Positions 5,421 to 33,755 of a stretch of DNA of 64,000 bases are shown one piece after another. How positions within the stretch are numbered: position 1 is the stretch's first letter; each line of letters begins with the position of its first letter. A program made the translations under genes and the position numbers. This DNA comes from Mytilus galloprovincialis (taxonomy: Eukaryota; Mollusca; Bivalvia; Mytilida; Mytilidae): positions 36,869,958 through 36,933,957 of the forward strand of contig NC_134842.1 of NCBI RefSeq assembly GCF_965363235.1. Direction: 5' to 3'. The notes below the pieces were generated by a model. The model did no database searches. It was not told the DNA's origin and saw only the letters and a program-made list of their open reading frames with translations.

Positions 5421-5685
5421 TGAGTGTTTGAAGATAGATGTAGCATGAGTGTTTGAAGATAGATGTAGCATGAGTGTTTATAGATAGATGTAGCATGAGT
5501 GTTTGAAGATAGATGTAGCATGAGTGTTTGAAGATAGATGTAGCATGAGTGTTTATAGATAGATGTAGCATGAGTGTTTGAAGATAGATGTAGCATGAGT
5601 GTTTGAAGATAGATGTAGCATGAGTGTTTGAAGATAGATGTAGCATGAGTGTTTGAAGATAGATGTAGCATGAGTGTTTATAGAT
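5421..5685. repeat. 25-bp minisatellite, about 10.6 copies
   Basis: The unit is TGAGTGTTTGAAGATAGATG followed by TAGCA. Variation is mainly GTTTGAAGAT versus GTTTATAGAT. The variants alternate, so higher-order duplication of unit pairs or triplets is likely. Because three units make 75 bases, the minus strand stays open in more than one frame. That is an arithmetic effect and not evidence of a protein. Confidence 0.95.
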
Positions 5686-11605: not shown

Positions 11606-11882
11606 ATCATATCAGCTCCAAAGCACTGTTACTACGCTGGTGATACTCTCGTTCACAAAACTTCCACCAGCAGTGGTATATACCTTGTGCTAGTAAATGA
11701 CAATAAATTTGATACAGGCGATTGGGGAGCAAGGTGAACTGTGGTTTATTTGTATCAATAGTACCGCTTAAGTCGACGCTAGGGGCCGTCTTGACCTTGT
11801 CGTAGGGTATGAATGATTCGTTCATTGTTGAAGACGCTACATCAACTGTCAAGATGAAGAACAGGAATAAAAGCCCTGTTCA
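11606..11882 (-). CDS. Unrecognised secreted-type reading frame, possibly partial or decayed
   Basis: The minus strand encodes a strongly hydrophobic leader, LLFLFFILTVDVASS, followed by a polar segment TMNESFIPYDKVKTAPSVD and a part with three cysteines. It ends at TGA. The leader looks like a signal peptide. However, no ATG lies in its own frame: the nearest ATG upstream is in another frame. It may therefore start in an unseen exon, be decayed, or carry an assembly error. A donor-like CAAG/GTATAT lies inside. A diverged duplicate is at 10980-11115. It sits about 120 bases downstream of the receptor gene's stop and on the same strand. I do not recognise a family. Confidence 0.4.
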
Positions 11883-12001: not shown

Positions 12002-12142
12002 TCATTCAATCATATCAATGTGGCACATCGGTGGATTGTTTTTAAAGTACATCTTTGGTAAGTCGTCATCGTCACAAATTTCTGGCATACAATCAATATT
12101 TTCCTGTTTATTCTCGTAAACCATATGAATGATGTTATCCTC
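12002..12142 (-). CDS. Receptor exon 10: cytoplasmic tail and stop
   Basis: The acceptor TATATTTCAG precedes EDNIIHMVYENKQENIDCMP and then EICDDDDLPKMYF, ending NNPPMCHIDMIE and TGA. The exon is 141 bases, phase 0 in. The tail carries a tyrosine in VYENK and an acidic cluster DDDD. No ITAM, ITIM or TIR domain is seen. Confidence 0.8.
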   Translation of the reverse strand, partial: EDNIIHMVYENKQENIDCMPEICDDDDLPKMYFKNNPPMCHIDMIE

Positions 12143-15100
12143 CTGAAATATATGAAAGCGTTGAACGTCCTTTAGTGTAACAAAATCGATGATGTTCTAA
12201 TATTATATATAGAGATGATTTTTTTTCGTAACGTAGATGCAATAAAATACGTGTTTCTGAATGTTGATGTAAAATTAATTCAATCTATAGATTAAAAACC
12301 AATTGTTCAAAGATCAATTGAAGGTCTTTCCACCAATAAGGATCTATTTTGAAATGAAAATATTAAAATTCAGTTGAAAATGTCAGTTCCTATGGTTAAA
12401 TGATATATAAATATGAATTTCAAGCAAAGGTCAAAATCTAGAACGTCCAATTAACCTATGACCTTGACCTCAATTTTAAGGTCATAAACCAAGGATCCCA
12501 AATTAAAAGACCCTAGGTCTGTATTATGTATGGTTCATGAGTAATATCACTTTACGCATAATTCTAAATATAACAGGGGCAGAAATCCCATTTATTCTCT
12601 TCGCACCCTTCCAATCAAAATTTATAAGTTACGACATGTCGCAACTAACAATTTAGTAAAAATAATTTGTTGAAATCTTATTGAGTGAAGGTTAATGAAA
12701 AAGAGTGAAAATAAGCCAAAATCAAAATTTAAAATTTGACCTTGACCTTTGACCTTGACATAATTTTCATTTTTTTGGACCAAGGATCTTAAATCAAAAG
12801 ACCCAAAGCCTTTACTTTATAATGATAATGAGTTATATTACCATACAACTAATATAAGATATAAAAGGGGGAAAAGTCGCATCAAATGTTTACGTACCCT
12901 TTTAACTAAAATTTACGTGTTATGCCATGTCGTAACACACATTTTGTGAAAATATTTTTTCTATATCTTATAGGATTTCTGAAAATAAGAGATAACAAGC
13001 CAAAATCATATTTTTGAACATGACCTTGACCTTTGACCTTGACCTCATTTTTCATTTTTTTGGACCAAGGACCTCAAATCAAAAGACCCTAGGACTCTAT
13101 CACTAATGGTTTTCCAGTAACAAATTTATTTCATTTATTTCATTACAAAAGGGGAAATAACTCTCATATGGAGTCTTCGTAAAGCTTCGGTGAAAATAAA
13201 ACGTAACATCCTGAGGATATAACGAGCAATTTGGAAAAATAAATTTGTCGCTTTCTTTTACAGTTGTGGAGGAGATCTGATAACAAGAAAAACAGTGTTT
13301 GGGGAGATAACTCTAACAAAGAAAAGTGTTCAGTTAAACAGGGTCAGTTTCAAAAGCGTATAGACTGAATGCTATCATATACAAAAAAACTAAGCGACAT
13401 CTTTTGAAACATTTTTACACCGCAAGAAAAAAATTAGGCGGAAGAAAAAAAAAATAATCAGAACAAATTCAATAGGTCTTTCCACAAGAAAGGTGGAAAG
13501 ACCTAATTATTGTGCAACAGTTAAAACATAAATCTTTTGTCAAATTTATGTTTAGAAACGAGAAATTACTCATTGTATTGTAAATTATAGATCCTACAAA
13601 AATATGAAAACATTTATAGAATAAAATTTGCCCTATTGCTACGTAATGTAAAATTCATTTTATTAAAAAAAAACTTGGTTAAATTGTGAACTTCTGCTTA
13701 ATTATGCTGTAAAAAAATTTGACAACTTAAATTTTATTGGAACGATAAATCGACTCACCAACAAACACTCATAAAACATGCTCAATTCATAGCGGTGTTC
13801 AGTCTCAAGTGGCGTTATTCTTTATTTAGACAACGGTTAATTTTGATTTTGTATTATATAGAATTAGAATATCAAAACTCTTTTCCATGTTACTGGTGTT
13901 AGATAGATTCCCTTTATGTTTTGTTTTTTTTTTTCTTTAATTTTACTGTTATCTTTTGGTGTATAAATATTTGTGTGTTGCACTTGGGAAATGGAAGATC
14001 GTAAGTTCGATAAGATTGATGCAGATGTAGCAATTATTGTGAAGTAAAGGGTTGTATAAAATGCACATGGACTACATATTGTTGATATGTGACACACTTT
14101 ATAAAATAGTTTTACGTATCTAGGCGCAAATCTTCAGTTGGAATTCTCAAGTGAGAATCCGGCTGGATAATGGATGGGGGTCTCACGGGTGAAAAAAAAC
14201 GATTTAATTTATCACAATGGTAAATCTATAAAAATCACCGTTGACTATATAATAATAACTAGTGATTAAGACTCTCAGAACAATAATGTGCATAATAGCA
14301 TTGTCTTATGACTTTCAAACATGAATAAATGCATCTTTTATACATATTGCTTTATGTTTTACCGTCTTAAAGTTTATAAATGATCACATACCTTGGGTCT
14401 CCGGTGTTTCTTCAACGTCATTGTCAGATATTTGATAAATACCAGCATCCCAATTGAACTAGCTACTGCGACAACCAAGACAGACACCAACAGATAAATA
14501 TGTCCTATTTTGAAGCAGAAATTGAATTAATTATGTAGTATTCATTGAGAATGATTTCGCGTGAGTAATGGGATCTAATCTATAACTATTTTATCTTCAT
14601 TATTACTGTAGAGAAGGGTTTCATAAGAATAAAAAATATTAAGGTGCTATACATTGTACCATCACTCAAAATAAATATCTATGCAACCAACCACAATTCT
14701 CACAGCTGTCAAAATATTACATTTTAAATGTAACACGACGGATGCCACATGGTAGCAGGATTTACTTACTCTCCCCGGGCACCTGAGATCACCTTTAGTT
14801 TTGTTTTCAAGGGGTTTGTGATTCTCTTGCTCTAGTTATAAATGTTGTTCTTTGTTTCTTGTGCTTTTTAATGTGTGTTTATACCAGTAACAATCTCGTC
14901 TATCCTTTGTAATGAAACACGTATTTCAATTTCACATTTGGTTAAGTTTCAGGGTTAAAAACACAATTACGTGACCGATGGTTTAGAATTTGGTGATGTC
15001 TTCGGGTAAGACAAAAGTCAATTGTCATCCGTTATTGCGTGATGTCCAATCACATGATATAACTTTTTTTATAGGAGTAACACGACGGATGTCACATGTG

Positions 15101-18100
15101 TAGCAGCAGGGTCTGCTTACCCTTCCGGAGCACCTGAGATTACCCACGGTTTTTTGGTAGTGTTCCTGTTGCTCTGTCTTTAGTTTTCTCTGTCGTTTTT
15201 TGTATACTGTTGTTCATGTTGTTTGTCTTTTGTTTTTTCTTCTTTGCCATGGTTTATTTTCGACTTATGAGTCTGAATGTTTCTTTGGTATCTTTCGCCT
15301 CTCTTTGATAATCTTGTAAAGTGACAAAAAACCAACCTCATCAATTTCAAAACAATTGTTATCCATCAAGTCAGTACCGAAGCACTGACAAACTGATTTG
15401 ATGATATATCCTCGGAAAATAATAGTCAATCAGCTGTGCTATAGACCCAGTTTTGGAAAATCGAAAAAACACTGCCTTTTTGGATTCATCTTGATTATGA
15501 ACGTTCAAACACAAACCTTTTCAAGCCAAGGATGTATGAGACTAAAACGCCTCAGAGTATTATGGTTGTAAGGGACATACAAATAGCCAAATTCTATCAA
15601 CTTTGCATTAGAAAGAGTCAGATCCTTAGTTTCTTCATAATGTCTTTATCATCAACGTAGAATTTACGAAAAGTGTGTTATAAATAATTCCAGTACCGAA
15701 CCATTGCTTACAGGACAGGAGTCGGTTTCACAAAAAAAAACTCAGGACTAAGATTGTTCATAAGTATACTGAATCGTTAATGACTTTACGATCAATCTTA
15801 GTCGAAAGTTTTTTTTTTTTTTTTAACTCCTGGTGATGATATTCATGCACCATTATCGTTTCTATTACCTTCGGTATTAGGAATTGACACTGGCTTTTTC
15901 GCTCCGCTCAGATCTGCAAAATAAGTAAAGAAAATTCAATTTGTATATCATTTCAAAATTTCTTTCGATAATATAGGAGCACCTACATCGTATTGTATTC
16001 AAGTATTATACAAAAAATGTAGTTTCTTTCGAAATACAATTGTAAAGTTTATGTAACAATTTGAAATGAAAATTAAAGGTAAGTTATTGTAATTACAAAA
16101 TAATTTTATTATTTCTCGGACAGTGATTTTGTGCAAAAGTTTTCCTGATTGAACACTAAGCGTAAAGCCGGATAGCGCGAACGGACGACGAACGGACAAC
16201 TTTTTTGCCATTCGTTCATGTCCGTTAGACGTCCGTTCTTATCCGTTAGACGTCTGTTCATATCCGTTTCATGTCCGTTCAGCGTCCGTTTTATCCGCTG
16301 ACGTCCGTTGGACAATTTTGAGCATGTTCAAAATGCTGAACGTCCGGTAGGAGTCCGTTTTTTACGGTACTCGTCCGTTTCGTTTCTGTTTTGTATACGT
16401 TACTTGTCCGTTATTCATCCGTTGGAGGTCCGGTAAACCAATTCACCAACGGACTTCTACCGGACGTATAACGGATAAAACGGATGATGAAAGAATGTGA
16501 AATGGACATAAATGGAAGGATAACGGATAAAACGGATACGTACCGAATGTAACACGGATAATTGCCAATTGAAAATTTCGCGTCAGAAATGCCAATTATT
16601 GGTATGTCAGATTTTTTGAGTGTCATGAATGTTTATTATTCATTTTGGATCACGTTTTCACAATCAAGCAGCTACACGGAAACTTTTTAATTATTTTAAG
16701 GTCACGTGTGTGTGATTTACATGTATTATTATTGCCGCCTTTAATTTTCCGCTTATCTTGTTTATCCGTTTTATCCGGTACGCTTCCGTTATGTGTTCGT
16801 TTTGTGGCCCGAGAACACAGTTATTTCGTAGTGCATTTCTTTTAGACAATAAATTCAAATTAAAAAAATCGCACCTGCTCTTTCTCAAAAAGATTTTTAC
16901 AGTGTAGTGTACTACTAGTGAGACAAATAATATCAAAATTATAGAAATTTCTACCAGCTCTAACTCAAAATATTGACAATTCTGTGTTAAGGGGGTGTAA
17001 AATTCAGTTTGACAGCTTCAGACGTGATAAAATTTGACCTTTTAGAACTGGACCAATTCACTACTTAACATAAAGATTCAGCACCCACATTTTTTTGACA
17101 TGTAATTACATCCCCCTACTTAATATTTCATGCATTTAATATCAAGAAATAAATTGGGAAAGTGTATCAAATAAAACATGCAAGTTATACACTGTTTACA
17201 CTAGGGACTATATTCGTAAACAACGAAAACCAAAGGACGATAACTGTGTCCTTGGACCTTATGCGGTACTCTACCGTTGGTTGTACGTTCGACATCCGTT
17301 CTGTCCGGTACGTTTCCGTTTCTCGTATGTTGCACATCCTGTGTGTGTCCGTTAAGCATTCGTTACGAGTCCGTTTTATTTGGTCAGTACATCAACGGAC
17401 TTCCAAAAGATAAACATTTGTCAACGGAAAATATTTGTTTTCATCCGTTGGGCGTCCAATCGAGCTATCCGTAAGGTGTGACCACAGCTTTATATAATGT
17501 TATAAAATGATACATTTGCAGTATGAAGTTATTTGGTATATTAAACGTTAATTAATTTAGAAACAGACCAAATATATTCTAGAATAGGAATTTGCATTTA
17601 ACTGTGCGCATTCACGTTTTCATTCGAGCAATGAACTTAAAGTTGGGGGAGAAAAACAAAGTAGAAATTTTGTTTAATGCCTGTAAATGTAGATTGTGAA
17701 AATTAAACGGGAGCTACCAACAGTAAGCCATAACCATGTTACATAACGTGACAAGAGGGAGATACGAACAACAAGCCAAAACCATGTAACATAACGTGAC
17801 AACAGGGAGATACGAACAACAAGCCAAAACCATGTTACATAACGTGACAAGAGGGAGATACTAACAACAACCCAAAACCATGTAACATAATGTGACAAGA
17901 GGGAGATACGAACAAGCCAAAACCATGTTACATAAAGTGACAAGAGGGAGATACGAACAACAAGCCAAAACCATGTTTCATAACGTGACAAGAGGGAGAT
18001 ATGAACAACAAGCCAAAACCATGTTACATAACGTGACAAGAGGGAGATACGAACAACAAGCCAAAACCATGTTACATAACGTGACAACAGGGAGATACGA

Positions 18101-21100
18101 ACAACAAGCCAAAACCATGTTACATAACGTGACAAGAGGAAAATACGAACAACAAGCCAAAACCATGTTACATAACGTGACAAGAGGGAGATACGAACAA
18201 CAAGCCAAACCCATATTACATAACTTGACAAGAGGGAGATACGAACAACAAGCCAAAAACCATTATACATAACGTGACAAGAGGGAGATACGAACAACAA
18301 GCCAAAACCCTGTTACATAACGTGACAAGAGGGAGATACAAACAACAAGCCAAAACCATGTTACATAACGTGACAAGAGGGAGATACGAACAACAATCCA
18401 AAACCATCTTACATAACGTGACAAGAGGAAAATACGAACAACAAGCTAAAACCATGTTACATAACGTGACAAGAGGAAAATACGAACAACAAGCCAAAAC
18501 CATGTTACATAACGTGACAAGATGGAGATACGAACAACAAGCCAAAACCATGTTACATAATGTGACAAGAGGGAGATACGAACAACAAGACAAAACCATG
18601 TTACATAACGTGACAAGAGGAAAATACGAACAACAAGCCAAAACCATGTTACATAACGTGACAAGATGGAGATACGAACAACAAGCCAAAACCATGTTAC
18701 ATAACGTGACAAGAGGGAGATACGAACAACAAGCCAAAACCATGTTACATAATGTGATAAGCGGGAGATACGAACAACAAGCCAAAACTATGTTACATAA
18801 CGTGACAAGAGGGAGATACGAACAACAAGCCAAAACCATGTTACATAACGTGACAAGAGGGAGATACGAACAACAACCCCAAACCATGCAACACCACTTT
18901 AATAAGTTTAATACACATGCTACACCATCAGTTTTCTACCAAATCCCGATGAACTCTTTGACTTTGCTTTATCATGCATTTTGCCATATTGTTTTGTGCT
19001 CCCACCAAATACTTATTTCAAAATTTTTCCTTTATGTTAACTTTTACAAAACTCTTCCTCTTTAACACTTCAGGACGAAATTGAACCAAACTTGGGAATC
19101 TAGTTTTAAAAGTGTGTTCAATAACCCGCTGCCAACCAACATGGTTAAAAAATGTCCAGAACGTTAAGATATACGCGCTGTCTATAGCTATGTCGACCAA
19201 AATTTGTAGCCGACTACTTCAGGTATATCTTGCCTTAAAATGTCGATTTTTACCTATTAGTTTTGGTTTTGCTAATTATCTTAAAATGTTTAATAGATAT
19301 AAAGACATTTACTAACAAATATGATCAGCAAGAAACGATTGACTCATAAATCAACGTGACTGAAATTGTAAGTCGACTTCTTCTAGGAGTTATTGTCCTT
19401 GAATGAAGGTTTTTGAAGTATGTTTTACCCATTTTTTTGTTTTGCGTAACTATAGAAAAAAAACATTCATACAGCAAATTTATCTCCGAAACGATTGGAA
19501 TACAATTTGTACAGTGATAAAACAAAGTAAATGTAAAAAGTTAAGATTTGTTTTGTTGCTGTGTTAAAATTGTAGAATGCATCGACGTGCTTGAGGTCAA
19601 TGCTCCTTCTTGCAGTTTTAGTGTGTATTCTTGAGATGAAATCAGTTGTTAAATAATATAGTCTAGTCTTAGGCAGCAACCATTTGATTTTCGGGGGGGG
19701 GGGGGGGGGGCTATGTTTTTTTTGGAAAAAAAAGTTTGTTTCCAGTTTTTGGAGAAAAAAATAGTTTGTTTTTGACCCTGAAAAAAAAATTGTTTGTTTT
19801 ACCCTCAGCTGCCACTATTTGTAATACTAAAATTGAAACGAAATCGAAAAAAGGCGAAAAAAAAAGTTTGTCCAGAAAAAAAATCCATAGCCCCCCCCCA
19901 CGAAAATCAAATGGTTGCTGCCTTATTTATTTATTTGTGTCGTTGATGTATGTCACTGATATAATTTTCGCCGTATTCAAAAGGTTATTAATAAATAAAC
20001 AAAAGTTCATTTACACAAACAAATTAAAATGTTGGCGCTATTCTGTACCAAAACTGGGAATGACATGAAAAGATAAAAATATGTAAAATAAGGAGTAAAT
20101 AGATTTTTAAAAATATTGTTTTTATTCGATTGCAGTTGGCCGAACATACTTCCAAAGATACAACGATTATAAAGGCCACACAAATTATTTCCCGTTGTAT
20201 TACTGTTTTTAAATTTAACAACTCTCCAATTTTTTATGTGAACAGTGGACTGGAGAAGATAACATTGTTTAGAAAACAGTACACTGATCACACCAATACT
20301 CACGGTGAACTGGCATAGTTCTGCTGCTTTGAAGTAAAGACAACGCTTCTGTAAGTTTTGCATTGATAGTAGTACTCAAAGGACCATCATTTTCCAATGT
20401 TGTGATTTCGTCACCAGATGGATAATCTTCGACAATTCTTGCTTTTACAAAAATAAGTATAGTTGTTACCATATGAAGAAACAGGTATAAACGTACTAAG
20501 GTATTAATTACTGGACAAGGAAATGACAGTTTCCATTCAAAGCAAAGATTGCTTTTGTCCATAAATAAGCATTTTCTTTCAAAATATACTAGTAGTTTTT
20601 AGTAAAGGTACTCTATGTATTAAAATTTTTCAGATAATAGGCAAAAAGACAAGGCAAATGGTACAAAAAATCGTCATTTGTGGTCTATAACTCCTGTAAG
20701 TAGTCAATTAATGATTTTATCAATGTTGTTGCGTTTATCAATCTTGCTGATAATGTTTGCTATTTAACGTTTCTTTCTGTCAATTATAGTTTTTAAGATG
20801 ATATGTATTATCATTTAAGTAGGGCAATAACTTCTTCAAGGAGTCGTCTGACACGTTTTGACTGAATGGATAATGATAACTTCTCATAAGTTCAAACAAA
20901 TCTTCCCTATTTTTAGTACTTTACAAGAAAGATAACCGAAAATACTTGCATTTTTTCCCTTTGTTATTTTTTTTTCTTTGGTAGCCATATGAACTGACAG
21001 GGGGATTCACGGGGCATTTTTGTTACCTAGATACACAAGAACTTATGTGCGCAAGTTTTATTTTAGCCTAGTAGTTTCAGAGGAGGAGATTTGTGTTAAA

Positions 21101-24100: not shown

Positions 24101-27100
24101 CAGGTAAATAACAACTATTCAACATTCTATACATAGATTGAAAATATCTTGATTGACTGAAAGCGAATTGAATGAACAGTAATGCATTTACTGCAGTGGA
24201 TATTTCTAAAAATTGACTGAAAGGGCTGAAAATGTCTGACTTATTATTTTTCAGTTTATTTTTTACTAACGAGTTTGAATGTCACTTTGATATGTTTTTC
24301 CCTGTCTTTTAAGATAAAAATGACCGTTTCAGTTTAAAATTGGTTTAATAGTAATTATGTTTAGACATTTTTATCGAAATCGCGCCAAAAACAGTGTATT
24401 TAAATTCTATTGATCGATATCTGGATCGTGTGTGTGGGGGGGGGGGGGTATGGGTGTGTGTGTGTGTTTGTATTTGTTCGTTTGTTTGTGAGAGAGAGAG
24501 AGAGAGAGAGACAATGTGTGGGCGACATCATCTTTCTGTACTGACTCATGATAGAATATAAAATTGAGAATGGAAATTGGGAATGTGTCAAAGCGACAAC
24601 AACCCGACCATAAAGCTAACAACAACCGAAGGCCACCCATGGGTCTTCAATGTAGCGAGAAACTCCCGCACCCGGAGGCGTCCTTCAGCTGGCCCCTAAA
24701 AAAATATGCATACTAGTTCAGTGATAATGGACGTCATCCTTAACTCCGAATTATACACAAGAAACTAAAATTAAAAATCATACTAGACTAAAAAAGGCCA
24801 GAGGATCCTGACTTGGGACAGGCGAAAAATGCTGCGTGGTTAAACATGTTTATTGAGATCTTAACCCTCCCCCTATACCTTTAGCCAATGTAGAAGAAGA
24901 AAAAACACACAACAATACGCACAGTAAAACTCAGTTTAAGAGAAGTCCGAGTCCGAGGTCAGAATATGACACAAAAGAAAATAAACAAAATGACAATGAT
25001 ACATAAATAACAACAGACTATCAGCAGTTACTGACATACCAGCTCCAGACCTCGATTAAACTGATTGAAAGATTATGTCTTCATCATATGAATATCAGGT
25101 ACAATCCCTCCTGTTATGGGTTTAGTATTATACCATCATGAATTATATGAGAAGAACATAACCCTTGTCATGCCAATAGGTTCCACTTTGTAAATACAGC
25201 TGTTTCTTAAACCACGCCTCTTTTGGGGAGATTTAGAATATTCATAGAAAATAAATTTTGTTTACATACTGGTTCCCAGTTCTGATCTGTAGGTTGCATC
25301 TCATAGAGACATAACTCGGTAAAGTTACCAGAAAATATACATGTGAATATTGTTTATATTGAAATCTATGGTAGCCCTACAGTCGAGGTAGGGATAGTTA
25401 AGAAATTTAGTGTTAGTTTAAACTCTTAGTAGTTCGGGGCATATAAACGTTGAAAATTTGCTGCACAGCCCTATATTTTGACCTCTGAAAAAAATAGTAG
25501 TGCATATGAACTTTCCATTCTAAGATATGATTTTTTTCAAAACTTCTTAGTAAAAGTGGTACAGTTTTAGCCGTAAAGGGAGTTCCTATTGGAACATTTA
25601 TTGTCAATATTTACAGAAATGCAACCAATAACTGGTTTAAGAATAAATGTGTTTAATTCCGATGCAAAAACCCTATAAGTAAATCAATTTAAAGTCTTAA
25701 TATTGGCTTATAACAAACGGGATTTAAAACTTGAATATTTTTTTAACATAGTCAAAATAATAAGAATCATACATAAAAAAAAAAGGTTCAACGTCAAAAA
25801 GTCACCAACCACGACTGTCATTATCGGTTAATTAAAAAAAAAATATCGTGAAAGAATCAGTAACAGTAGTAAAGTATTTCGATAAGATCATGACAGATCA
25901 GGTATAGGATCGTATGACATAAAAGTAAACACACATAATTTTGTTCATTATATGAATGACTAAATTACTTTTCTCTGAACACTTTCGTTCTATTTTAAAG
26001 TTCAAAATGGCTCTCAAAATAATTTTGCAGTAGCTTTATCAGAAAATGGGTCAAAATTTGAATATATGTGTAAATTTGGTATTTGGTATTTATGATCGCG
26101 AAAAACTTTGTACGACTTTTTTTAGATCGTAAAAAGGATCGTAAAAGATCCGTTGTCGCTTATTTGTAATTATACAAATTTATGAAACTGTTCAATAATA
26201 TGAAAATTTATAATGTTATTATTACAGCAAAAGACTGGACTTTTAATTGAGTTTACTAAAAGGTTTGTTTTTAGAAAATAAGGTGGGGTTTAATTGCTTA
26301 CATCCACTTCATTTTAATTCTGGAGGATAGTGGTTTCATTGACAATCATACCACATCTTCTTATTTTTGTATTGACGGTTAATTACACTCAAAACAAATA
26401 CGTTCTTATTAAGATATCACATGCTTCAATCAATTATAAACATCATTGGTAAAATACATTTTATTTTCTAATGATAACTATAAAACAAATGAGAAGATGG
26501 GGTATAATTGTCAATAAGACAATTATTTATCAAAGACCAAATGACGTAGATGTAAGCATTTGTATGTCACCGTGTGGCTTTCCACGATGAGCAAAAACGT
26601 AGTCTTATCTGGCCACGCATTGCTTTCGAATTAAAAATAACGCGTTACCTGGCCTTTCACAAACAATTTCGATTGAAAATCAACAAAATCCTTCTTTTAA
26701 AAAATAATCTTAACCATTTTAATTGAAAAACATTACTTCCATTTTACTGTACTATCTGACAAACAACGAATGCAATTTCAAATAAATCATCTTTTGTTAC
26801 AATGTGATCATAGTAGATCTAAAACTTTCTATTTTTTTTTAATCATTCGCTAAATGTTAAGTATCACCTCTTTGTTTTTTGTTAAGTACTGAACAAAGAC
26901 ATATACATCCGAATAGGAGCAAGAATATTTCATATTATGACATCTAAAAGATAAAAGGCTTGATTAATACAAATTTACGTTTGTCTTCTCCTTTTTTACT
27001 GTATTTGTCACAAACAAGATATATGCTTTCCTCTCATCATTAAACATGATATGTGTTTGAAATATCATAAAAAAAATCACATGATACATAACTACCTTCA

Positions 27101-30100
27101 GGAAATACTATATCGCAAACCAATCCGTGACGTGCATTGCTGTCGTTGCATTCGTCTGCCTCCCATCCAATTATTTTATTCACACTCTCGTACACAAGGA
27201 AAACGCACAGCAATAACGACGAATCTTCTTTGATGTTGTCAAGCGGAAAGTTGTCATAATACCTTTGTGCTTTAACAACTGTGTGGTTACTCACTTGATG
27301 GGCTGTCCAAAATGTGATGTTGCTATGATAATAAACATGAAAATAATGAATATTTAGATAAATAATGTTAAGATATATAAAATGTAGGTAAACAATATAT
27401 TTCAATTTAGTGTCATTGCCATGATGCTTAAATCTTTGATGAGTTTCAGTGAATTTGAAATTAAGGATACTATTGATACATGAAGGACTGCTTCATACCT
27501 TGATCTTTTCCTCAATGTTGACACAGATGGACGACTTCACACTAAAATCTATGACAAACAAGATGATTTCAACTTCCCAATTATCAAGTTCCCATTTATC
27601 AGCAGTAACATACTCTCTGTTTCGTCGTATGGAGTTTACATAACTCAATTGATACGTTATGATCTTGCATGTTTACACTATACGGACTTCATATGCAGGA
27701 GTGTGCTCCTTACGTAGAAACTGCTCCAACAGAGTTATGAGGAGGAAAGATAAATGAAGGCAACAGTAGTATACTGCTGTTTAATAGTCAAAATCGATAA
27801 AGCGAAAACAAATCCGGGTCACAAACCAAAACCGAGGGAAACAAATAAGAGGAAAATAACGGAACAACGGAAACACTGAACTGCAACAACACAAACGCCA
27901 ACATACATACATGTAGAAACGGACTATCTGATAACAACTGCCACATTCCTGACATGATAGAGGACATTTTAAGAAAAAAAACTGTGGGTTGAACCTGGTT
28001 GTATTGCTAGCCAAACCTCCCGCTTATATGGCAATGTTAAAAATACCGCTATAATGACAACATTACGTGACCGGAATACAGTACTAATAAATGCAACAAC
28101 ACTCAGGACAGAGAAATACATAAAAAAAAAAATATAATACTACATTAGAACATGTAAACCACAGAATAACAACGGACACCTCCCATGAATTTACGACAGT
28201 ACATCAGGACACCACAATAGAATTATGAATTGTTCGCCAAACGAATGTATCAAAGCTTCAAAAAGTTACATATTTTTTTCTGACGTCACAAGTGAATTTC
28301 TAAACATTTCTAAGTTTTTAGCAGCGGTATACTACCGTTGCCTTTATTTGTATATATGTAAATATATATTTCAATTTTAAGTGAATAGTAAATCATCCGA
28401 CGTTGCCATAAAAATTAGAGAAAATAATCATGAGTTCTACCATCACTTATGGAGGAGGTAAAAAAATCTATCTAAGACTCTTGCAATATTATTAAACATT
28501 TGACGTTTTAATTTTACACAAGTATTCCCTATTCCAAACTAATATACAAATTAAAAGAGTTGGTCCTGCTTTGTTTCATAAAAAAGAATGGCCACTGAGA
28601 TACAAGTGTATTGTCTTTGGGGGGATAAATCGTACTTCACTAAAAAAATCACTATGATTCAAACAAAAAATTCTCTGAAACTGTGTTTTTCAACAAACAA
28701 TCGGCATTTCCATGGGAACAAACTGTGTCCCTCTTTTTTGCCGATTTGTTCCTTTATTCATATGAGGCTGACTTCATACAGGAACTTCTAAGAAAGAAAG
28801 AAGTTAGCAGTATCCTTTAACTTTATTTTCTGCCATATGGATGATGTTCTCTCACTAAATAATTCAAAATTTGGTGACAATGTTGAACGAATCTATCCCA
28901 TCGAACGTCAGAAGAAGGATACAACAGATACAGTTAAGTGTGCCTCATATCTTGACTTACATCTAGAAATTGACAATAAGAGTCGGTTGAAAACAAAACT
29001 TTACGAAAAAGGAGATGATTTCAGCTTCCCAATTGTGAACTTCTATGTAGCAACATTCCAGCAGCGCCTGCACACTGTGTATATATCTCCCAGTTGGTAC
29101 GATATTTAAGGGCTTGTATTTCCTATCATGATTTCCTTGGTAGAGGGTTGCTGCTCACATAGAAATTATTAAACCAAGAGTTCCAAGTGATGAAGTTGAA
29201 ATCACCCCTTCGTAAGTTTTACGGACGTCATCACGAGTTGGTTGACCGTTTCATAGATGATAGCGAATATGTTCCTTATGTCGTAACTACAATCCCGTCC
29301 CCTTTTCCCGAATGTGACCTACCGAATTAGACGAAGTACCGGGTTTGTACTAACATGAGAAACATGACAGGTGCCACAAGTGGAGAAGGATCTGCTTACC
29401 CTTCTAGAGCACCTGAGATCACCCCAGTTTTTTGGTGGAGTTCGTGTTGCTAAGTCTTTAGTTTTCTATGTAGTATTTTGTGTACTATTGTTTGTCTGTT
29501 GGTCTTTTTGGGTTTTTTTTTCCATGGCGTTATCAGTTTATTTTCGACTTATGAGCTTGAATGTCCCTCTGGTATCATTCGCCTCTCTTTTTCAGTAATG
29601 CTCGAGGCCAAAAACATTTTGAGAGTCAAAAACCTAACACAAATTTTGAAGAGCTGATAGAGCCTAAACGAACCAAAGTTAAAACCAAACTTAGGGAAAT
29701 TGTGTAGTGTAGTATTTAAAAGAATAAGGCTTTAATGAGGTAATAAACTTATCTAATGACTTTTATCCAGATCAAATGTAATGTACAAACATACAATTCA
29801 TGTTAAAGAACTCCCAAAAAATAATATTAAACTTTCTTATTCCATAAATGGAGCCAACGAAAAACACAAATTAAAGTACTGTGGTTATGCATCATCATCT
29901 TATTTATTATGCTAGCTTTGCTTAAGCATATACCTTTATTGTACAAAAACGATATTTACCATCCGCAATTTATATCTTCGTACATATACTGAAAGTCTGC
30001 TCGTACACTAGGAGATACATATACAAGCCTTCTACTTAGAGATTTGCAATACTCATATCCTCTCCGCCATGTCATCTGTTCTTCTACTGGTAATACTGAT

Positions 30101-33100
30101 AAAGGTGATTCCACTGTAAGTTAAGTACAAAACGCTGGTCTATATTTTTTATTCACTTGCTTTAACTGATGCAAAGACAAAACGTGTGCTTACTAAACAT
30201 GTATCCTTAGGTTCAAATTAACAAAATTAATAAGTTAGTTGTATTGACCGATGTCTTTCTTCATTCAATGAAATACAGACTATGCTCAGCCTATTAAAAG
30301 GACATTAGCTACGAGATATACCAAAAATTAAAAAAATGATTTGTTTTTGTTCATTAATGAAAGTGAAATAGTGAAATAATAATTCGCTTATAGCAGCTAT
30401 TTTGGTTCAATTTTGTCAAAATAAGATAAGAAACGTCGCTGATGAATTATTCACTAGCAAGTGAATAATTCGTCCTCATTGGACCCGTATGCATGTGACC
30501 TTCGATTCAACCCCTTAGCTAGCGACAGGTTACGCATAAACTAGGCGTGTTACAAAAGGAAATAAATGTCAACATTGAAGGTGAAACAAGGGTAAACCAT
30601 TTGATTGCCTGATTCGATCCACAACAACTCATTCTTATACAGGGAAAAAACGATGATTCTAATATGACGTGCTTCTTTCGCTTTGTAAGCAACACCGTGA
30701 TAACGTGATAAAATTCTCGATATATCTATACTTAGCGCAGACTCCGACATGTATATAATAATTGCTGTTAAAATATACCTCCCACGGTAAACCACATGTA
30801 TCTTAACCTATGTGCAAACGCTTTGTCGATTTCGCTGTGTTGAAAAAAAAACCTACAGAACCTTTATTCTTATTCTGAGGCATAACAAAAAGAATTAATG
30901 CATTGGAGATCGGAAAAATGTACAAAATCAAAATAAATTAAAATTCCGCGAAATTCTATTATTTTTTTTGGCGCATTAACGTCGTTTCAAAACATGACGT
31001 CAGACCAATGAAAACGCCACAGTTGAAGGTTTTCCCACTGCGTTTACTTTCTAAACTCGGATAATATTGCATTAAAATAAAGTTTTGAGGTAGGTGTTGC
31101 TTTTTTTCTATTCTATTGCATTATTCGCAAATCTAATGATTTCAGCAAGTCAACATGGCGGCTCCTTGGTTATAAAATGCCAACAGTGATGACGGTAGCT
31201 TACGAAAAAGAAATGTAAATTAAACAAGAGGCTCTCAAGAGCCTGAATCGCTCACCTTAATTGTTTTGGTTAAATCTCTCATCAATGATTATTTTGGCTT
31301 TTCAATTTATTTAAATGTTCTTTGAATCGTCCTATTTTCTTCAAAAGCAAAAAAAAATCATTTTCTCCTATGTTCTATTTTAGCCATAGGAGCTATGTTT
31401 CTGACATACAAGGAAATGAAATATAAAATTTATACCAGATACTCTGAAACTCATTTAGCTTAAGTTTGGCTGAAATTGATACAGCAGTTTCAAAGGAGAA
31501 GATTTTTTAAAGTAAGTCAACATGATGAACAAATTGTGAAAAAAGTCTTTAAAGGGCAATAACTCCTTAAGGGGTCAATTGACAATTTTGGTCAAATTTG
31601 TGCAGGATAATCTAAGGAACAATCATGATAAGTGTCATCCAAATCCATTCAGTAGTTTCAGAGGAGAAGATTTTTTAAAGTTAGCAAATGTGATGAACAA
31701 ATTGTGAAAAATTGTCATTTAAGGACAATAACCCCTTTAGGGGTTAATTGACAATTTTGGTCATATTAACTTATTTGTAGATCTTACTTTGCTGATCATT
31801 TTTGCTGTTTACAGTTTATCTTTATCTATAATAATATTCAAGATAATGACCAAAAACTGCAAAATTTCCTTAAAATTACCAATTAAGTGGCAGCAACCCA
31901 ACAATGGTTTGTTTGATTCATCTGAAAATTTCAGGGCTGATAGATCTTGACCTAATGAACATTTTTACCCCGTCAGATTTGCTCTAAATGCTTTCGTTTT
32001 TGAGATATAAGCCAAAAACTGCATTTGACCCCTATGTTCTATTTTAAGTAACGACGGCCATGTTTTTGACGGATCAAAAATCCAAGCACACACTTTGTGC
32101 AGGATAATCTAAGGAACAATCATGCTAAGTTTCATCCAAATCCATTCAGTAGTTTCAGAGGAGAAGATGTTTGAAAAATTGTTAACGACGACGACTACGG
32201 ACGCCAAGTGATGAGAAAAGCTCACATGGCCTTGTAGGCCAGGTGAGCTAAAATTCAAATGTTGGGTTTAAGAATTAAAAGAATCAACCATATTTTTCTA
32301 GCGGTTATTTAAGAAATGATTCATGCAAGCTACAGATTTATTAGATTTGTTTTACATTTATCTTACAGTGTAGAACAGCCACACACACGGCATACCTATC
32401 CTCGCTTCAGTTTTTTAATGACCGTATTTGTCCTATTAGAATCGAAATAATTCATGAAAGCCATAGATTTGTTGGAAATTTACACATAGCCTGGGCCGTG
32501 ATATTCGACAAATCTAAGGCTTCCATGAATTATTTCTTAATTAAAATATTTTTTAACCTATAATATGAAATCAACAGACCTACACAATCCATTTCCACGT
32601 GTTCACGCTATCTGTTTATTTCCATGTTTATGTTTACATCAGGTTGAATGACCGTCGGCAGTCTTCGGAGGTCACCTTGATTGTTAATTTGATGGCGTTT
32701 AGACTAGAATACACACGAAATGCTGATACTTAATATCGAGTCCATGCATCGTAAATTTTTAACTTTATACTTTTTATAGTTTGGATATACGTTTTATATA
32801 AATAAGAATAAGTGGTATGGGTGCCAATGAGACAACTCTCCATCCAAGTCACAATGTGTAAAAAGTTAACTATTATAAGTGGTCACAGTACCGCTTTCAA
32901 CACGAAGCCTTGGCTCACACCGAACAGCAAGCTATATATAAATGGCCCCAAAATGACTACTGTAAAATAATTCAAACAGGAAAACCAACGGTCTAATCTA
33001 CATGAAAAACGAGAAACCAGAAACACCTATGAACCACACCAACAAACGACAACCACTGAACAACAGATTCCTGACTTAGGACAGATGCATAAACATGCAG

Positions 33101-33755
33101 CGGGTCTAAACGTTATAACAAGCGCCAACCTTCACCATAACATAAGACATTATTGTAACATTACAATATAAAAAGAAACACTATGAAATATCAATTGAAA
33201 TGGCTTAACTCGATCAAAAAGACATTAAAACAAAAACAAGTAAATAAACACTGAACGAATACGTTTGATCTATGACACAATATAAATACAAAACGCAAGT
33301 GCCTAAATAAAATCAAGTATAAGAATTTGAGTCAAATCGGTGAACATGAATTTAACAGCTAATGCCCCTTTAAATAACCAATATAGGCTATACTTGTATA
33401 ATACTTTCCAATCTTCCATTCAATTTGAATGGCTATGGCAGTCACACATAACGATTGATTTGTTCTTACATTCTATGATGTCAAAATCATGAATTATGTG
33501 TTGAACAGGCAGATGTTCGTAGTTATCTGTAACACAGATATTCATGTTAATCAAATCATGATGGCATCTGTAAAATGTTCGAGGTGTTGATTTACAAATT
33601 AGAACCATTGGTTGAAAGGTAAGAAGCAACCTTTTGTGATTTGAGTCGCAAGGCCTAAAAATCATGTTTTTATTTATATATTCCTCATGTCGTAAAGTTA
33701 ATGCGAAAACAATTGAAAAAAGTATCGTGTGTCGTTTAGTTGTATTTCTCAACAT
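12002..33755 (-). CDS. Type I membrane receptor, CTLD-CTLD-PAN-stalk-TM, 10 exons, 592 aa
   Basis: Exons in transcript order are 33755-33470, 30113-29960, 27322-27096, 23746-23590, 22728-22517, 21852-21547, 20441-20304, 15913-15869, 14504-14392 and 12142-12002. Together they make 1779 bases, 592 residues plus stop. Every junction has AG/GT borders and matching phase, and the frame stays open throughout. Order of parts: signal peptide and four-cysteine segment (1-95), C-type-lectin-like domain 1 (96-222), domain 2 (223-345), PAN/apple-like domain (346-447), stalk (448-508), transmembrane helix (about 511-532) and tail (533-592). About eleven N-glycosylation sequons lie outside the membrane. 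The family suggests adhesion or recognition of non-self at the cell surface. The ligand is unknown. The exon 1 assignment is the least certain part. Confidence 0.8.
12322..13504. mobile_element. TIR element with three degenerate internal units (intron 9)
   Basis: The element starts AGGTCTTTCCACC and ends GGTGGAAAGACCT, a 13-base inverted match. Inside are three degenerate units of about 285 bases. Each has TGACCTTGACC wording, then a TTTTTTGGACCAAGGA-type segment, an AAAAGACCC segment and an AAAGGGG segment. Units start near 12465, 12735 and 13015. It is non-coding and lies in the last intron of the receptor gene. The right end has a second AGGTCTTTCCAC that forms a small hairpin. Target duplication is unresolved. 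Confidence 0.65.
14392..14504 (-). CDS. Receptor exon 9: transmembrane helix
   Basis: The acceptor GCTTCAAAATAG leads into HIYLLVSVLVVAVASSIGML, then VFIKYL and the basic stop-transfer segment KKHRRPK. The donor is CCCAAG/GTATGTG. The exon is 113 bases, phase 1 in and 0 out. The hydrophobic run followed by positive charge sets the topology: N terminus outside, C terminus in the cytoplasm. Confidence 0.85.
14726..14890 (+). repeat. Retroelement 3'-tail fragment (intron 8)
   Basis: TAACACGACGGATGCCACAT, then CACCTGAGATCACC and TTTTCAAGGGG match the tail of the reverse-transcriptase element family seen complete at 28700-29600. Coding sequence is absent. Confidence 0.7.
15072..15320 (+). repeat. 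Second retroelement 3'-tail fragment (intron 8)
   Basis: It has the same family wording: ACACGACGGATGTCACATG, GGAGCACCTGAGATTACCC, CCATGGTTTATTTTCGACT and TTTCGCCTCTCTTTG. It lies about 180 bases after the previous fragment and in the same orientation, so the two are separate insertions or one tandem pair. Confidence 0.75.
15869..15913 (-). CDS. Receptor exon 8: membrane-proximal stalk (45 bases)
   Basis: The acceptor TTATTTTGCAG and donor GAAG/GTAATAG bound a 45-base exon encoding LSGAKKPVSIPNTE. It is phase 1 on both sides, so it could be skipped without breaking the frame. Very short symmetric stalk exons are common in such receptors. Confidence 0.7.
16155..17490. mobile_element. Element with TCCGTT-rich arms (intron 7)
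   Basis: Near the left end is GCCGGATAGCGCGAACGGACG. Near the right end, in reverse, is TTACGGATAGCTCGATTGGACG. Between them are many degenerate GTCCGTT/AACGGAC words at 16185-16560, 16755-16800 and 17240-17460, pointing inward from each side. This looks like a non-autonomous inverted-repeat element whose arms grew by duplication of a short word. No coding sequence is seen. Exact ends are uncertain. Confidence 0.5.
17705..18890. repeat. 48-bp minisatellite, about 24-25 copies (intron 7)
   Basis: The unit reads ACAAGAGGGAGATACGAACA, then ACAAGCCAAAACCATG and TTACATAACGTG. Most copies differ by one or a few bases, for example AGGAAAATAC for AGGGAGATAC and GATGGAGATAC. Some early units are shortened. 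Because 48 is a multiple of three, long frames stay open on both strands and repeat a 16-residue word. I treat these as a by-product, since the array lies in an intron and no start or splice context was found. Confidence 0.95.
19672..19922. mobile_element. MITE, poly-G type, TTA duplication (intron 7)
   Basis: The ends are GGCAGCAACCATTTGATTTT followed by C and a G-run, and the mirror image at the right. TTA flanks both sides (19669-19671 and 19923-19925). A 3-bp TTA/TAA duplication fits the PIF/Harbinger superfamily. The interior is A-rich. The copy is 251 bases and non-coding. It is a relative of the elements at 35627-35945 and 48298-48597, which share ACCATTTGATTTT. Confidence 0.8.
20304..20441 (-). 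CDS. Receptor exon 7: stalk
   Basis: The acceptor TTTTTGTAAAAG and the strong donor CACC/GTGAGT bound 138 bases, phase 1 to 1. It encodes RIVEDYPSGDEITTLENDG, then PLSTTINAKLTEALSLLQSS. There are no cysteines. The segment is polar and probably extended, with a short possible helix in the second half. Confidence 0.7.
20640..21135 (+). repeat. Old copy of the Helitron-like repeat R5 (intron 6)
   Basis: Degenerate matches to the 31226-32255 element include GGGCAATAACTTCTTCAAGG, TTGCTGATAATGTTTGCT and TAGTTTCAGAGGAGGAGAT, followed by GACGGACGCCC. The order is scrambled or decayed. Confidence 0.45.
21547..21852 (-). CDS. Receptor exon 6: PAN/apple-like domain
   Basis: The acceptor TGTATTTTTCAG and donor ATACAC/GTATGT bound 306 bases, phase 1 to 1. 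The core reads FEVRLNSLADCLLKCNEST, then PCELFVWNKLNSTCQLLN and a later KCCYW and EGCTTYD. The spacing Leu-x-x-Cys-Leu-x-x-Cys...Cys-x-Leu-Phe...Cys-x-Leu-Leu is that of PAN/apple modules, which bind protein or sugar ligands. It has seven cysteines and sequons at NES, NST and NES. Confidence 0.8.
22517..22728 (-). CDS. Receptor exon 5: second half of C-type-lectin-like domain 2
   Basis: The acceptor TTATATTTTTGTAG and donor AATCAG/GTATATG bound 212 bases, phase 2 to 1. It encodes INSFWTYHRTSN, then NYCAYVVIERPLEPNKLTW and MSDFCLNSSRSFICES. The three cysteines, the tryptophan between the first two, and the FICE ending are the C-terminal half of the fold. The usual WND calcium motif is replaced (WMS). 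The EPN here lies after the third conserved cysteine, not in the calcium-site loop. Confidence 0.85.
23590..23746 (-). CDS. Receptor exon 4: first half of C-type-lectin-like domain 2
   Basis: The acceptor TTTTTTTTCAG and donor ACAAG/GTTCGT bound 157 bases, phase 1 to 2. It encodes TLYIANLTWTDANDFCEERN, then SSLMLENGPFTYGELDYLL and VKGYWSNT. The segment LTWTDANDFC matches the first helix and cysteine of the family. The donor GTTCGT is weaker than the others. Confidence 0.85.
24427..24512. repeat. Compound microsatellite (TG, G-run, GA)
   Basis: The stretch holds GTGTGTG, a run of ten or more G, then (TG)n, (GTTT)n-like words and (GA)n. Confidence 0.9.
24545..25200 (+). repeat. Dispersed repeat R1, longest copy (intron 3)
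   Basis: Starting with AATTGAGAATGGAAATTGGG and ACAACAACCCGACCATAAAG, it continues through GAGAAACTCCCGCACCCGG, AGTTCAGTGATAATGGACG and AAAAAAGGCCAGAGGATCCTG. It runs to about ACCCTTGTCATGCCAATAGG. It is non-coding and gives the best internal reference for the shorter copies. Confidence 0.7.
26318..26375 (-). repeat. Dispersed repeat R2, fragment (intron 3)
   Basis: In reverse it reads AAGAAGATGTGGTATGATTG, then TCAATGAAACCACTATCC, the head of the family seen at 32803-33140. Confidence 0.65.
26490..26610 (+). repeat. Dispersed repeat R2, fragment (intron 3)
   Basis: GATGGGGTATAATTGTCAAT, then CAAAGACCAAATGACG and GTCACCGTGTGGC, is a diverged copy of the same family. Confidence 0.55.
27096..27322 (-). 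CDS. Receptor exon 3: second half of C-type-lectin-like domain 1
   Basis: The acceptor TTTATTATCATAG and donor CTGAAG/GTAGTT bound 227 bases, phase 2 to 1. It encodes NITFWTAHQVSNHTVVKAQR, then LLLCVFLVYESVNKIIGWEA and DECNDSNARHGLVCDI. The LC...W...EC...VC pattern mirrors exon 5. No QPD, EPN or WND motif is present, so classical calcium-dependent sugar binding is unlikely. Confidence 0.85.
27455..27725 (+). pseudogene. Reverse transcriptase fragment (intron 2)
   Basis: The frames read LFLNVDTDGRLHTKIYDKQD, then DFNFPIIKFPFISSNILS and YGVYITQLIRYDLACLHYTD. This is the segment after the catalytic box in the same element family as 28700-29300. The two differ clearly, so they are separate old insertions or subfamilies. 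The miniature element at 27753 follows almost directly. Confidence 0.75.
27753..28347. mobile_element. Non-autonomous TIR element (intron 2)
   Basis: The left end AAGGCAACAGTAGTATACTG is matched in reverse at the right by AAAGGCAACGGTAGTATACC. Each end also contains a small palindrome (CAGTAGTATACTG). The interior has no gene. The chance minus-strand frame at 27781-28014 is ignored. I know GGCAACAGTAGTATACTGC as a common mussel repeat end. Confidence 0.75.
28700..29300 (+). pseudogene. Reverse transcriptase fragment with MDD box (intron 2)
   Basis: The frames read ADLFLYSYEADFIQELLRKK, then MDDVLSLNNSKFGDNVERIY and SYLDLHLEIDNKSRLKTKLY. They continue with the QLIRYSRAC-type tail and RKFYGRHHELVD wording. 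MDD is the catalytic aspartate pair of the reverse transcriptase palm. The copy is 5'-truncated and the frame is broken in several places, so it is inactive. Catalytic box, the LDL box and the C-terminal tail appear in the expected order. The family is Penelope-like or a LINE, unresolved. Confidence 0.8.
29303..29600 (+). repeat. 3' tail of the same retroelement (intron 2)
   Basis: GACCTACCGAATTAGACGAA, then ACATGACAGGTGCCAC, CACCTGAGATCACCCC, CCATGGCGTTATCAGTTTAT and TTCGCCTCTCTTT follow the coding remnant directly. Here coding part and tail are in the same orientation, which defines the normal arrangement for the family. Confidence 0.75.
29960..30113 (-). CDS. Receptor exon 2: first half of C-type-lectin-like domain 1
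   Basis: The acceptor TTAACTTACAG and donor GGATG/GTAAAT bound 154 bases, phase 1 to 2. It encodes ESPLSVLPVEEQMTWRRGYE, then YCKSLSRRLVYVSPSVRADF and QYMYEDINCG. MTWRRGYEYC is the first helix and first cysteine of the fold. It has the same size and phase pattern as exon 4. Confidence 0.85.
30430..30470. repeat. Short palindrome (intron 1)
   Basis: GAATTATTCACTAGCAAGTG followed by AATAATTC forms a hairpin with arms of about 12 bases. Confidence 0.6.
31226..32255 (+). mobile_element. Helitron-like non-autonomous repeat R5 (intron 1)
   Basis: It begins AAGAGGCTCTCAAGAGCCTG and ends TGGCCTTGTAGGCCAGGTGA followed by GCTAA. The right end has a short hairpin (TGGCCTTGTAGGCCA) about ten bases before CTAA, as Helitron-type ends do. 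CTCACCT near the left mirrors AGGTGAG at the right. Inside are two unit-like duplications with TCCAAATCCATTCAGTAGTT and TCAGAGGAGAAGAT. This is among the most common repeat types I know in bivalves. The Helitron class is inference from the ends. Confidence 0.65.
32445..32530. repeat. Inverted repeat hairpin (intron 1)
   Basis: GAAATAATTCATGAAAGCC, then ATAGATTTGTTGG, pairs with CGACAAATCTAAGGCTTCCA, then TGAATTATTTC. A related word, AAGAAATGATTCATGCAAGC, lies at 32308. Confidence 0.7.
32803..33140 (+). repeat. Dispersed repeat R2, longest copy (intron 1)
   Basis: It starts AAGTGGTATGGGTGCCAATG, then AGACAACTCTCCATCC. It continues with GTACCGCTTTCAACACGAAG, GGCCCCAAAATGACTACTG and AACAGATTCCTGACTTAGG. 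It is non-coding and abundant in mussels as I recall it. Confidence 0.7.
33470..33755 (-). CDS. Receptor exon 1: signal peptide and four-cysteine segment
   Basis: ATG at 33755 opens MLRNTTKRHTILFSIVFALT, a basic start followed by a hydrophobic run typical of a signal peptide. The rest contains RPC, LICKS, FYRCHH and NICVTDNYEHLP, four cysteines in about 60 residues, and ends in DFDIIE. A strong donor, GAAT/GTAAGA, closes the exon in phase 1, which fits exon 2. If the donor is not used, the frame reads on for 16 more codons to a TGA and adds three cysteines. So it could alternatively be a single-exon secreted protein of 111 residues. I do not recognise the four-cysteine segment as a named domain. 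Confidence 0.6.

What the first reader, a model, noticed from the sequence alone, without database searches (positions are those of the whole stretch)
12002..33755. A complete CTLD-CTLD-PAN transmembrane receptor gene hidden in ten small exons
None of the exons stands out alone, yet all nine junctions have AG/GT borders, agree in phase and leave one open frame of 592 residues. The two lectin-like domains are each cut by a phase-2 intron and bordered by phase-1 introns. That pattern points to duplication of a two-exon cassette. I do not know a named receptor with two C-type-lectin-like domains, one PAN domain, a helix and a short acidic tail. It may be a lineage-specific immune or adhesion receptor.
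Basis: partly seen in the sequence, partly recalled or inferred. Interest (0 to 1): 0.75.

Follow-up and report, generated by a model that had tools for sequence, protein, structure and literature searches.

The report
Mussel-like two-lectin PAN receptor gene
A real cell-surface receptor gene with two lectin-like domains and one PAN domain appears to be spread over at least nine small exons, and it belongs to a family of such genes in this animal, although the proposed first exon is doubtful and its job is untested.

Summary
The ten-exon chain exists as described: 592 codons, minus strand, nine AG/GT junctions, phases 1-2-1-2-1-1-1-1-0. Comparison makes it more than a drawing. Nine of ten exons recur in order in two diverged paralogues 15 Mb away (B, C), with in-phase splice sites and no stop in the codons compared, the 45-base microexon included. 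Eight counterparts, two by sequence match and six assigned by eye, lie in order on another contig (D), where three more loci keep the order. dN/dS is 0.45 against C and 0.72 against B. PAN passes Pfam's cut-off in five of five copies scanned; CTLD2 just passes; CTLD1 does not. So this is a family of type I CTLD-CTLD-PAN-stalk-TM-tail receptors. The weak part is exon 1: broken in B, not found in C, background-like codon use, no Pfam match. 'Complete' is not shown. An immune or adhesion role is inference. Seven searches of the held library showed no paper pairing PAN and CTLD in a bivalve receptor.

The parts
33470..33755 (-). Proposed exon 1 (95 codons: possible signal peptide and a 4-Cys stretch); DOUBTFUL
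   Evidence: ORF and donor aat|gtaagaac; only in A1 and A2; B copy broken by indels and an about 2.4-kb insertion; codon-score z 0.8; single-sequence model pLDDT 36.7; no Pfam match at E 0.1
29960..30113 (-). Exon 2: first half of CTLD1 (phase 1 in, 2 out)
   Evidence: counterpart in B and C; in D assigned by eye; dN/dS 1.68 against B and 0.84 against C
27096..27322 (-). Exon 3: second half of CTLD1 (phase 2 in, 1 out)
   Evidence: dN/dS 0.30 against B and 0.24 against C; 36% identical match in D
23590..23746 (-). Exon 4: first half of CTLD2 (phase 1 in, 2 out)
   Evidence: dN/dS 0.48 (B), 0.40 (C)
22517..22728 (-). Exon 5: second half of CTLD2 (phase 2 in, 1 out)
   Evidence: exons 4+5 alone give Lectin_C 23.3 bits, cut-off 22.6; in B an in-frame loss of 20 codons
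21547..21852 (-). Exon 6: whole PAN domain (phase 1-1)
   Evidence: PAN_1 26.6 bits, cut-off 21.4; B 25.6, C 23.1, D 33.5, F 30.6
20304..20441 (-). Exon 7: stalk, threonine/serine-rich (phase 1-1)
   Evidence: 68% identical over 28 residues in B; C has a weakly similar shorter one in the same place, not recovered by the per-exon search
15869..15913 (-). Exon 8: 45-base microexon of the stalk (phase 1-1)
   Evidence: B has a counterpart with acceptor and the donor gaag|gtaata; C has a 45-base phase 1-1 counterpart in the same place (tblastn E 0.013); not sought in D
14392..14504 (-). Exon 9: transmembrane helix and basic stop-transfer KKHRRPK (phase 1 in, 0 out)
   Evidence: 66% (B) and 55% (C) identical; in D assigned by eye
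12002..12142 (-). Exon 10: 46-residue acidic cytoplasmic tail and stop codon
   Evidence: 57% (B) and 44% (C) identical; in D assigned by eye, 28%; an AATAAA lies about 50 bases after the stop, at a density close to chance

Best explanation
A protein-coding gene for a type I membrane receptor with a tandem of two divergent C-type-lectin-like domains, one PAN/apple domain, a glycosylatable stalk, one transmembrane helix and a short conserved acidic tail. It is one member of a multi-locus receptor family of this genome. Shown by comparison: exons 2-10, their order, phases, constraint, domain identity of PAN and (narrowly) CTLD2, and the family. Inferred: the CTLD-CTLD-PAN ectodomain binds a ligand at the surface of a haemocyte or epithelial cell, probably without calcium-dependent sugar binding because no EPN/QPD motif stands in the long loop; binding is passed on by the conserved tail through an unknown adaptor or endocytic partner. 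The signal peptide must come from exon 1 or, more likely, from a 5' exon not yet located.
For: Exact model. Nine of ten exons have counterparts in B and C in the same order, with splice sites of the same phase available, and 0 stops in the compared codons: 413 over 8 exons of B, 411 over 7 exons of C (the microexon was not in that comparison, and the stalk of C was not recovered by it). dN/dS 0.45 (C) and 0.72 (B) overall. D on another contig: counterparts of 8 of 8 exons sought, with sites of the same phase available, the donor of CTLD2a being weak; E, G and H keep the order 1a-1b-2a-2b-PAN-TM-tail. No indel in any of the ten exons between A1 and A2, while alignments of the surroundings carry many gaps. 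PAN_1 over cut-off in A, B, C, D, F. CTLD2 profile finds the PLA2 receptor in the PDB at E 6.9e-5. 10 of 11 N-glycosylation sequons lie between residues 148 and 416, the ectodomain. Tail positions E10, P20, D25, P37, P38 and I45 are invariant among A, B, C, D.
Against: No transcript could be examined. CTLD1 of the window gene has no Pfam match, nor have CTLD1 of C, D and the C9 locus to Lectin_C; its PDB profile hits reach only E 0.11, although all nine rows are C-type-lectin-like proteins. Exon 1 fails the comparative tests. Exons 1a (1.68), 2b (1.28), TM (1.05) and tail (2.45) have dN/dS above 1 against B (few sites, no significance test), and CTLD2 of B has lost 20 codons with one of the four cysteines, so B at least may be decaying. 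Splice sites of a wanted phase are easy to find, so their presence in B, C and D is supportive only together with order and position. Several matches in E, G and H contain stops, which may or may not lie outside the exons (not examined).
Confidence: 0.8

Rival explanations
1. The gene is exactly the 592-residue product as drawn, with exon 1 (33755-33470) as its true start and N-terminal 4-Cys segment.
For: Good donor, right phase, hydrophobic start; only such candidate in the 9.9 kb scanned upstream; intact in A1 and A2 with one amino-acid change; part of the relic in B lies about 300 bases before CTLD1a, so its position next to the gene is old.
Against: Candidates of this kind occur 5 and 8 times on the two strands of the 64-kb window, so one in 10 kb is about chance. 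Broken in B, not found in C, no other copy in the genome. Codon score z 0.8, GC 0.32. Similarity to B continues past the proposed donor.
Confidence: 0.25
2. The locus is a decaying copy (pseudogene) of a once functional receptor.
For: Four exons have dN/dS above 1 against B; the window contains many dispersed repeats.
Against: No stop, frameshift or lost AG/GT in the ten exons of A1 or A2; dN/dS 0.45 overall against C.
Confidence: 0.07
3. The second, near-identical copy (A2, about 95 kb away) is the other haplotype wrongly placed in the assembly, so there is one gene and not two.
For: Mostly 94-98.6% nucleotide identity, two pieces at 87% and 91%, with many indels, a range that I recall as possible for alleles in mussels; the copied block reaches at least from about 7 kb to 48 kb of the window.
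Against: Nothing decisive: a recent tandem duplication would look the same. B, C and the C12 cluster do not depend on it.
Confidence: 0.45
4. An ordinary sugar-binding C-type lectin receptor (calcium-dependent).
For: CTLD2 alone over the Lectin_C cut-off; one EPN triplet at residue 321.
Against: That EPN lies between the second and third cysteines (311 and 332), not before the second as in the canonical long loop (position recalled); no QPD or WND; CTLD1 has PLDN there in A, B and C.
Confidence: 0.1

Closest known systems
Bivalve-specific multidomain C-type-lectin proteins ('CTLDcps', category C) of Mar Drugs 2023;21:254, PMC10140915 (passages and section 2.4 seen)
   Same: C-type-lectin-like domain combined with other domains in an expanded bivalve repertoire, uncharacterised
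   Different: The passages name WSC, sushi, scavenger-receptor, apextrin and Ig partners 'among others'; of two matches to 'pan' in the text I saw one, 'pan-genome' in a reference; the figures that draw the architectures are not held
Mannose receptor family (MRC1, PLA2R1, DEC-205)
   Same: Type I receptor with tandem CTLDs (recalled); the CTLD2 profile finds PLA2R at E 6.9e-5
   Different: That family has a ricin-like domain, FNII and 8-10 CTLDs (recalled); here two CTLDs and a PAN domain
PAN/apple proteins (HGF, plasma kallikrein, factor XI, Sarcocystis SML-2 lectin)
   Same: PAN domain by Pfam; the first 15 Foldseek rows are all SML-2 or HGF fragments (SML-2 is a PAN/apple lectin and the HGF N domain a PAN domain, recalled), best E 0.25, not significant, on a model of pLDDT 52.8
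   Different: None of these has CTLDs in a membrane receptor (recalled)
NK-cell type CTLD receptors (NKG2D)
   Same: Best PDB match of the CTLD1 profile, E 0.11; calcium-independent protein recognition (recalled)
   Different: NKG2D is type II with one CTLD (recalled)

Membership tests
[quoted passage not shown]
   CTLD2 23.3 bits scanned alone (over 22.6), 17.8 in the whole protein; CTLD1 no match; CTLD1 of B 22.2; CTLD2 of B 13.5 and of C 15.8
[quoted passage not shown]
   CTLD1 C118, C186, C205, C216; CTLD2 C243, C311, C332, C341 (assignment by eye, pattern recalled); kept in C; CTLD2 of B lacks the counterpart of C311
Calcium-dependent sugar-binding CTLD | EPN or QPD in the long loop and WND | tested here: not met
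   only EPN at 321, outside that place; no QPD, no WND
PAN/apple domain | Pfam PAN_1 above cut-off | tested here: met
   A 26.6, B 25.6, C 23.1, D 33.5, F 30.6 bits against 21.4
Type I membrane receptor | N-terminal signal peptide | tested here: inconclusive
   exon 1 has a hydrophobic start but no comparative support; no signal-peptide predictor was available
Type I membrane receptor | One hydrophobic helix with basic stop-transfer, then a cytoplasmic tail | tested here: met
   hydrophobic stretch from residue 511, then KKHRRPK; counterpart in B and C and, by eye, D; no topology predictor was available
Mannose receptor family | Ricin-like domain, FNII and eight or more CTLDs | tested here: not met
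   two CTLDs and a PAN domain; the whole-protein scan lists only PAN_1 and Lectin_C
Bivalve-specific CTLDcp | No orthologue outside bivalves | not testable with these tools
   no other animal genome is held
Immune receptor | Expression in haemocytes or induction by microbes | not testable with these tools
   no transcript data

The most novel reading that the evidence does not exclude
An unrecognised bivalve receptor class: a multiplying CTLD-CTLD-PAN family with the full set of parts on two large contigs (and CTLD-CTLD-PAN on a third), with a fast-changing outer half of CTLD1, a variable stalk and a short cytoplasmic module (acidic run, then PP) kept between contigs, acting as a diversified non-self or self recognition system with its own signalling partner.
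Probability: 0.2. Interest if true: 0.7.

Novelty: new variant of a known kind. Interest (0 to 1): 0.45.

Why it matters
Bivalves live without antibodies and carry large lectin repertoires (recalled, and in line with PMC10140915). A membrane-anchored family with one fixed architecture and a conserved tail would be a concrete candidate for how lectin-like recognition reaches the inside of the cell, and the exon map given here makes its members findable, because no single exon except PAN stands out in profile scans.

Tried and rejected
Signal exon elsewhere: scans of 9.9 kb upstream in A (1 candidate, exon 1), of the stretches held upstream in B (5.0 kb, 1 candidate) and C (5.9 kb, 2 candidates), in D (3 kb, none) and in short stretches of two C9 loci (420 and 840 bases, none) gave nothing that the copies share. 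A 150-base similarity between A (34811-34663) and C looked like an upstream exon, but the same sequence also lies in L048 on C7, so it is a repeat.

The ORF at 11879-11607 looked like the first exon of a next family gene; it is a dispersed repeat (150 scored matches of 1158 candidates, many with stops).

Two other exon candidates that I tried by hand did not hold: the one at 25.3 kb does not fit in phase, the one at 14.2 kb does not fit the tail in phase and shows no more conservation than the intron around it.

PAN gave pLDDT 52.8 and no significant structural match; the frame of exon 1 gave 36.7.

Full report
WHAT WAS CLAIMED AND WHAT IS THERE. From open frames and splice borders I first joined eight exons (531 residues); the stalk exon then came up by conservation with B and C, and the 45-base microexon, already among the candidates and conserved with B, completed a chain of exactly 592 residues. 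The nine junctions have AG/GT and phases 1-2-1-2-1-1-1-1-0.

IS IT MORE THAN CHANCE. In DNA of about 32% GC, frames and AG/GT pairs are easy to find, so the chain alone proves little. Comparison inside the same genome does more. The window lies at C5:36869958-36933957 of a 1.38-Gb assembly; that the large contigs seem to be numbered 1 to 14 would suit a mytilid mussel (karyotype recalled; no call names the species). A search with the eight-exon protein found 39 matches at E 0.1 or better: the window gene (A1), a near-identical copy about 95 kb away (A2), diverged copies at C5:51.898-51.914 Mb (B) and 51.950-51.961 Mb (C), and weaker matches elsewhere. In B and C, counterparts of exons 2 to 10 were found (9 of 10), in order, on one strand, with acceptor and donor sites of the right phase available. 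There is no stop in the 413 codons compared over 8 exons of B, nor in the 411 over 7 exons of C (the stalk of C was not recovered there, being short and only weakly similar, and the microexon was handled). The microexon, which nobody would call from one sequence, is present in B with an acceptor and the same donor motif, and in C as a 45-base stretch in the same phase and place (tblastn E 0.013). Overall dN/dS is 0.72 against B (dS 0.33) and 0.45 against C (dS 0.81). CTLD1b is the most constrained exon (0.30 and 0.24); 1a, 2b, TM and tail exceed 1 against B on few sites, not tested for significance. Introns of A and B still align in patches at about 68-91%, so B is a duplicate of the segment and not a chance match.

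THE FAMILY IS WIDER. PAN_1 (150 scored of 888 candidates) and a CTLD1b-like query (20 matches) lie near each other at three more places: C12:24.04 Mb, C12:23.69 Mb and C2:21.30 Mb. At the first (D), CTLD1b and PAN match the window gene by tblastn at 36% and 26% identity; I assigned CTLD1a, CTLD2a, CTLD2b, a Thr-rich stalk, a TM helix and an acidic tail by eye from the open frames between and after them. All eight have sites compatible with the phases of the window gene; of the seven donors, that of CTLD2a looks weak. A search with a joined D protein shows four loci on C12 (D, E, G, H) with matches in the order 1a-1b-2a-2b-PAN-TM-tail on one strand, plus one partial locus (PAN, TM, tail) (35 matches). 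Several of those matches contain stops, which may be intron sequence beside the exon; I did not examine this. The full set is thus matched at A1, A2, B and C on C5 and at D, E, G and H on C12: eight loci, or seven if A2 is an allele. C2 (F) has CTLD1b, 2a and PAN, and a likely 2b, in order; its TM was not identified in the stretch held.

DOMAINS. PAN_1 is above its cut-off in A, B, C, D and F. CTLD2 of the window gene passes the Lectin_C cut-off by 0.7 bits when scanned alone, but not inside the full protein; CTLD2 of B and C score below it (13.5 and 15.8) and that of D has no match. CTLD1 of the window gene has no Pfam match; CTLD1 of B scores 22.2 against 22.6, while CTLD1 of C, D and the C9 locus have no Lectin_C match. 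A profile of five CTLD1s finds only C-type-lectin-like proteins in the PDB (9 of 9 rows, best E 0.11); the CTLD2 profile finds the PLA2 receptor at E 6.9e-5, and two of its 17 rows are unrelated proteins (E 0.098 and 0.82). CTLD1 and CTLD2 profiles align at E 1.5e-4, probability 52%, 17% identity, so the two are probably related, and the duplication seems older than the split between C5 and C12. No EPN/QPD stands in the long loop and there is no WND, so classical sugar binding is unlikely.

THE WEAK EXON. Exon 1 is the part without support. A genome search with it returns A1, A2 and 11 rows at E 0.098 or worse. In B the corresponding stretch carries frame-breaking indels, a stop in the aligned frame and an insertion of about 2.4 kb, and the similarity to A runs on past the proposed donor. 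In C nothing like it was found in the 5.8 kb before CTLD1a. Its codon score lies 0.8 standard deviations from background, while seven of the other nine exons score between 1.6 and 2.9, the microexon 0.8 and the hydrophobic TM exon -1.6 (training on six CTLD loci). Starts with a hydrophobic stretch and a phase-1 donor occur 5 and 8 times on the two strands of the window, so finding one within 9.9 kb is expected. For it: it is intact in both A1 and A2, and part of its relic in B lies about 300 bases before CTLD1a, so it has long been the gene's neighbour. I put the chance that it is the true first exon at about one in four.

A1 AND A2. The whole codons of the ten exons differ at 11 replacement and 11 silent codons and by no indel, while the alignments around them carry many gaps. 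Identity is mostly 94-98.6%, with pieces at 87% and 91%. The copied block reaches at least from about 7 kb to 48 kb of the window. Whether this is a young tandem duplication or a haplotype placed twice cannot be settled here.

HOW IT MOST LIKELY WORKS. Shown: architecture, constraint, family. Inferred: the ectodomain (10 of 11 sequons lie in it) recognises a ligand through the CTLD pair and PAN; the Thr/Ser-rich stalk, made of one normal exon and a microexon, lifts it from the membrane; the helix with KKHRRPK anchors it; the 46-residue tail acts through a conserved module. Between A, B, C and D the tail keeps E10, P20, D25, P37, P38 and I45 invariant, with an acidic run before the PP pair. A scan found no ITIM-like motif in the tail. 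A partner by endocytosis or by an unknown adaptor is a guess.

LITERATURE. Nine searches of the held library were answered. Seven were about PAN or apple domains together with lectins, receptors or bivalves: five returned nothing, one listed a Cryptosporidium and a plant-kinase paper, one a marine-lectin review, seen only as listings. None shows a CTLD-PAN receptor of a bivalve. Of the other two, led to PMC10140915 on bivalve C-type lectins (passages and section 2.4 seen), which describes uncharacterised bivalve-only multidomain CTLD proteins; its figures, where architectures are drawn, are not held, so this family could be among them. One search gave nothing of use. Much of the literature is not in the library, so absence here is weak.

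VERDICT. A real gene and a real family of one architecture, correctly spotted from raw sequence; the start is doubtful and the function open. A new variant of a known kind (multidomain CTLD receptors).

Noticed in passing
window 11607-11879 (-): An open frame that looks like a signal peptide plus Cys-rich segment right after the gene; it is a dispersed repeat with 150 scored matches (of 1158 candidates) across the genome, many with stops.
   Followed up: yes
window 17709-18888: A 48-base minisatellite of about 24.6 copies inside the intron between stalk exon and microexon; it gives long open frames on both strands.
   Followed up: partly
window 5421-5679: A 25-base tandem repeat, 10.4 copies, 96% matches.
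   Followed up: no
L039 (C5:51893001-51898026), B copy: The exon-1 relic of paralogue B is interrupted by an about 2.4-kb insertion whose two ends look, by eye, like inverted repeats of each other.
   Followed up: partly
window 61601-62359 (+): An open frame of 252 residues without Pfam match at E 0.1; it may be a piece of a mobile element.
   Followed up: partly
C12:23.68-24.10 Mb (L060-L062): A cluster of four CTLD-CTLD-PAN receptor loci with the full set of matches and one partial locus, all on one strand.
   Followed up: partly
window 47341-48000: A repeat of about 660 bases with dozens of copies at about 91-94% identity on many contigs.
   Followed up: no
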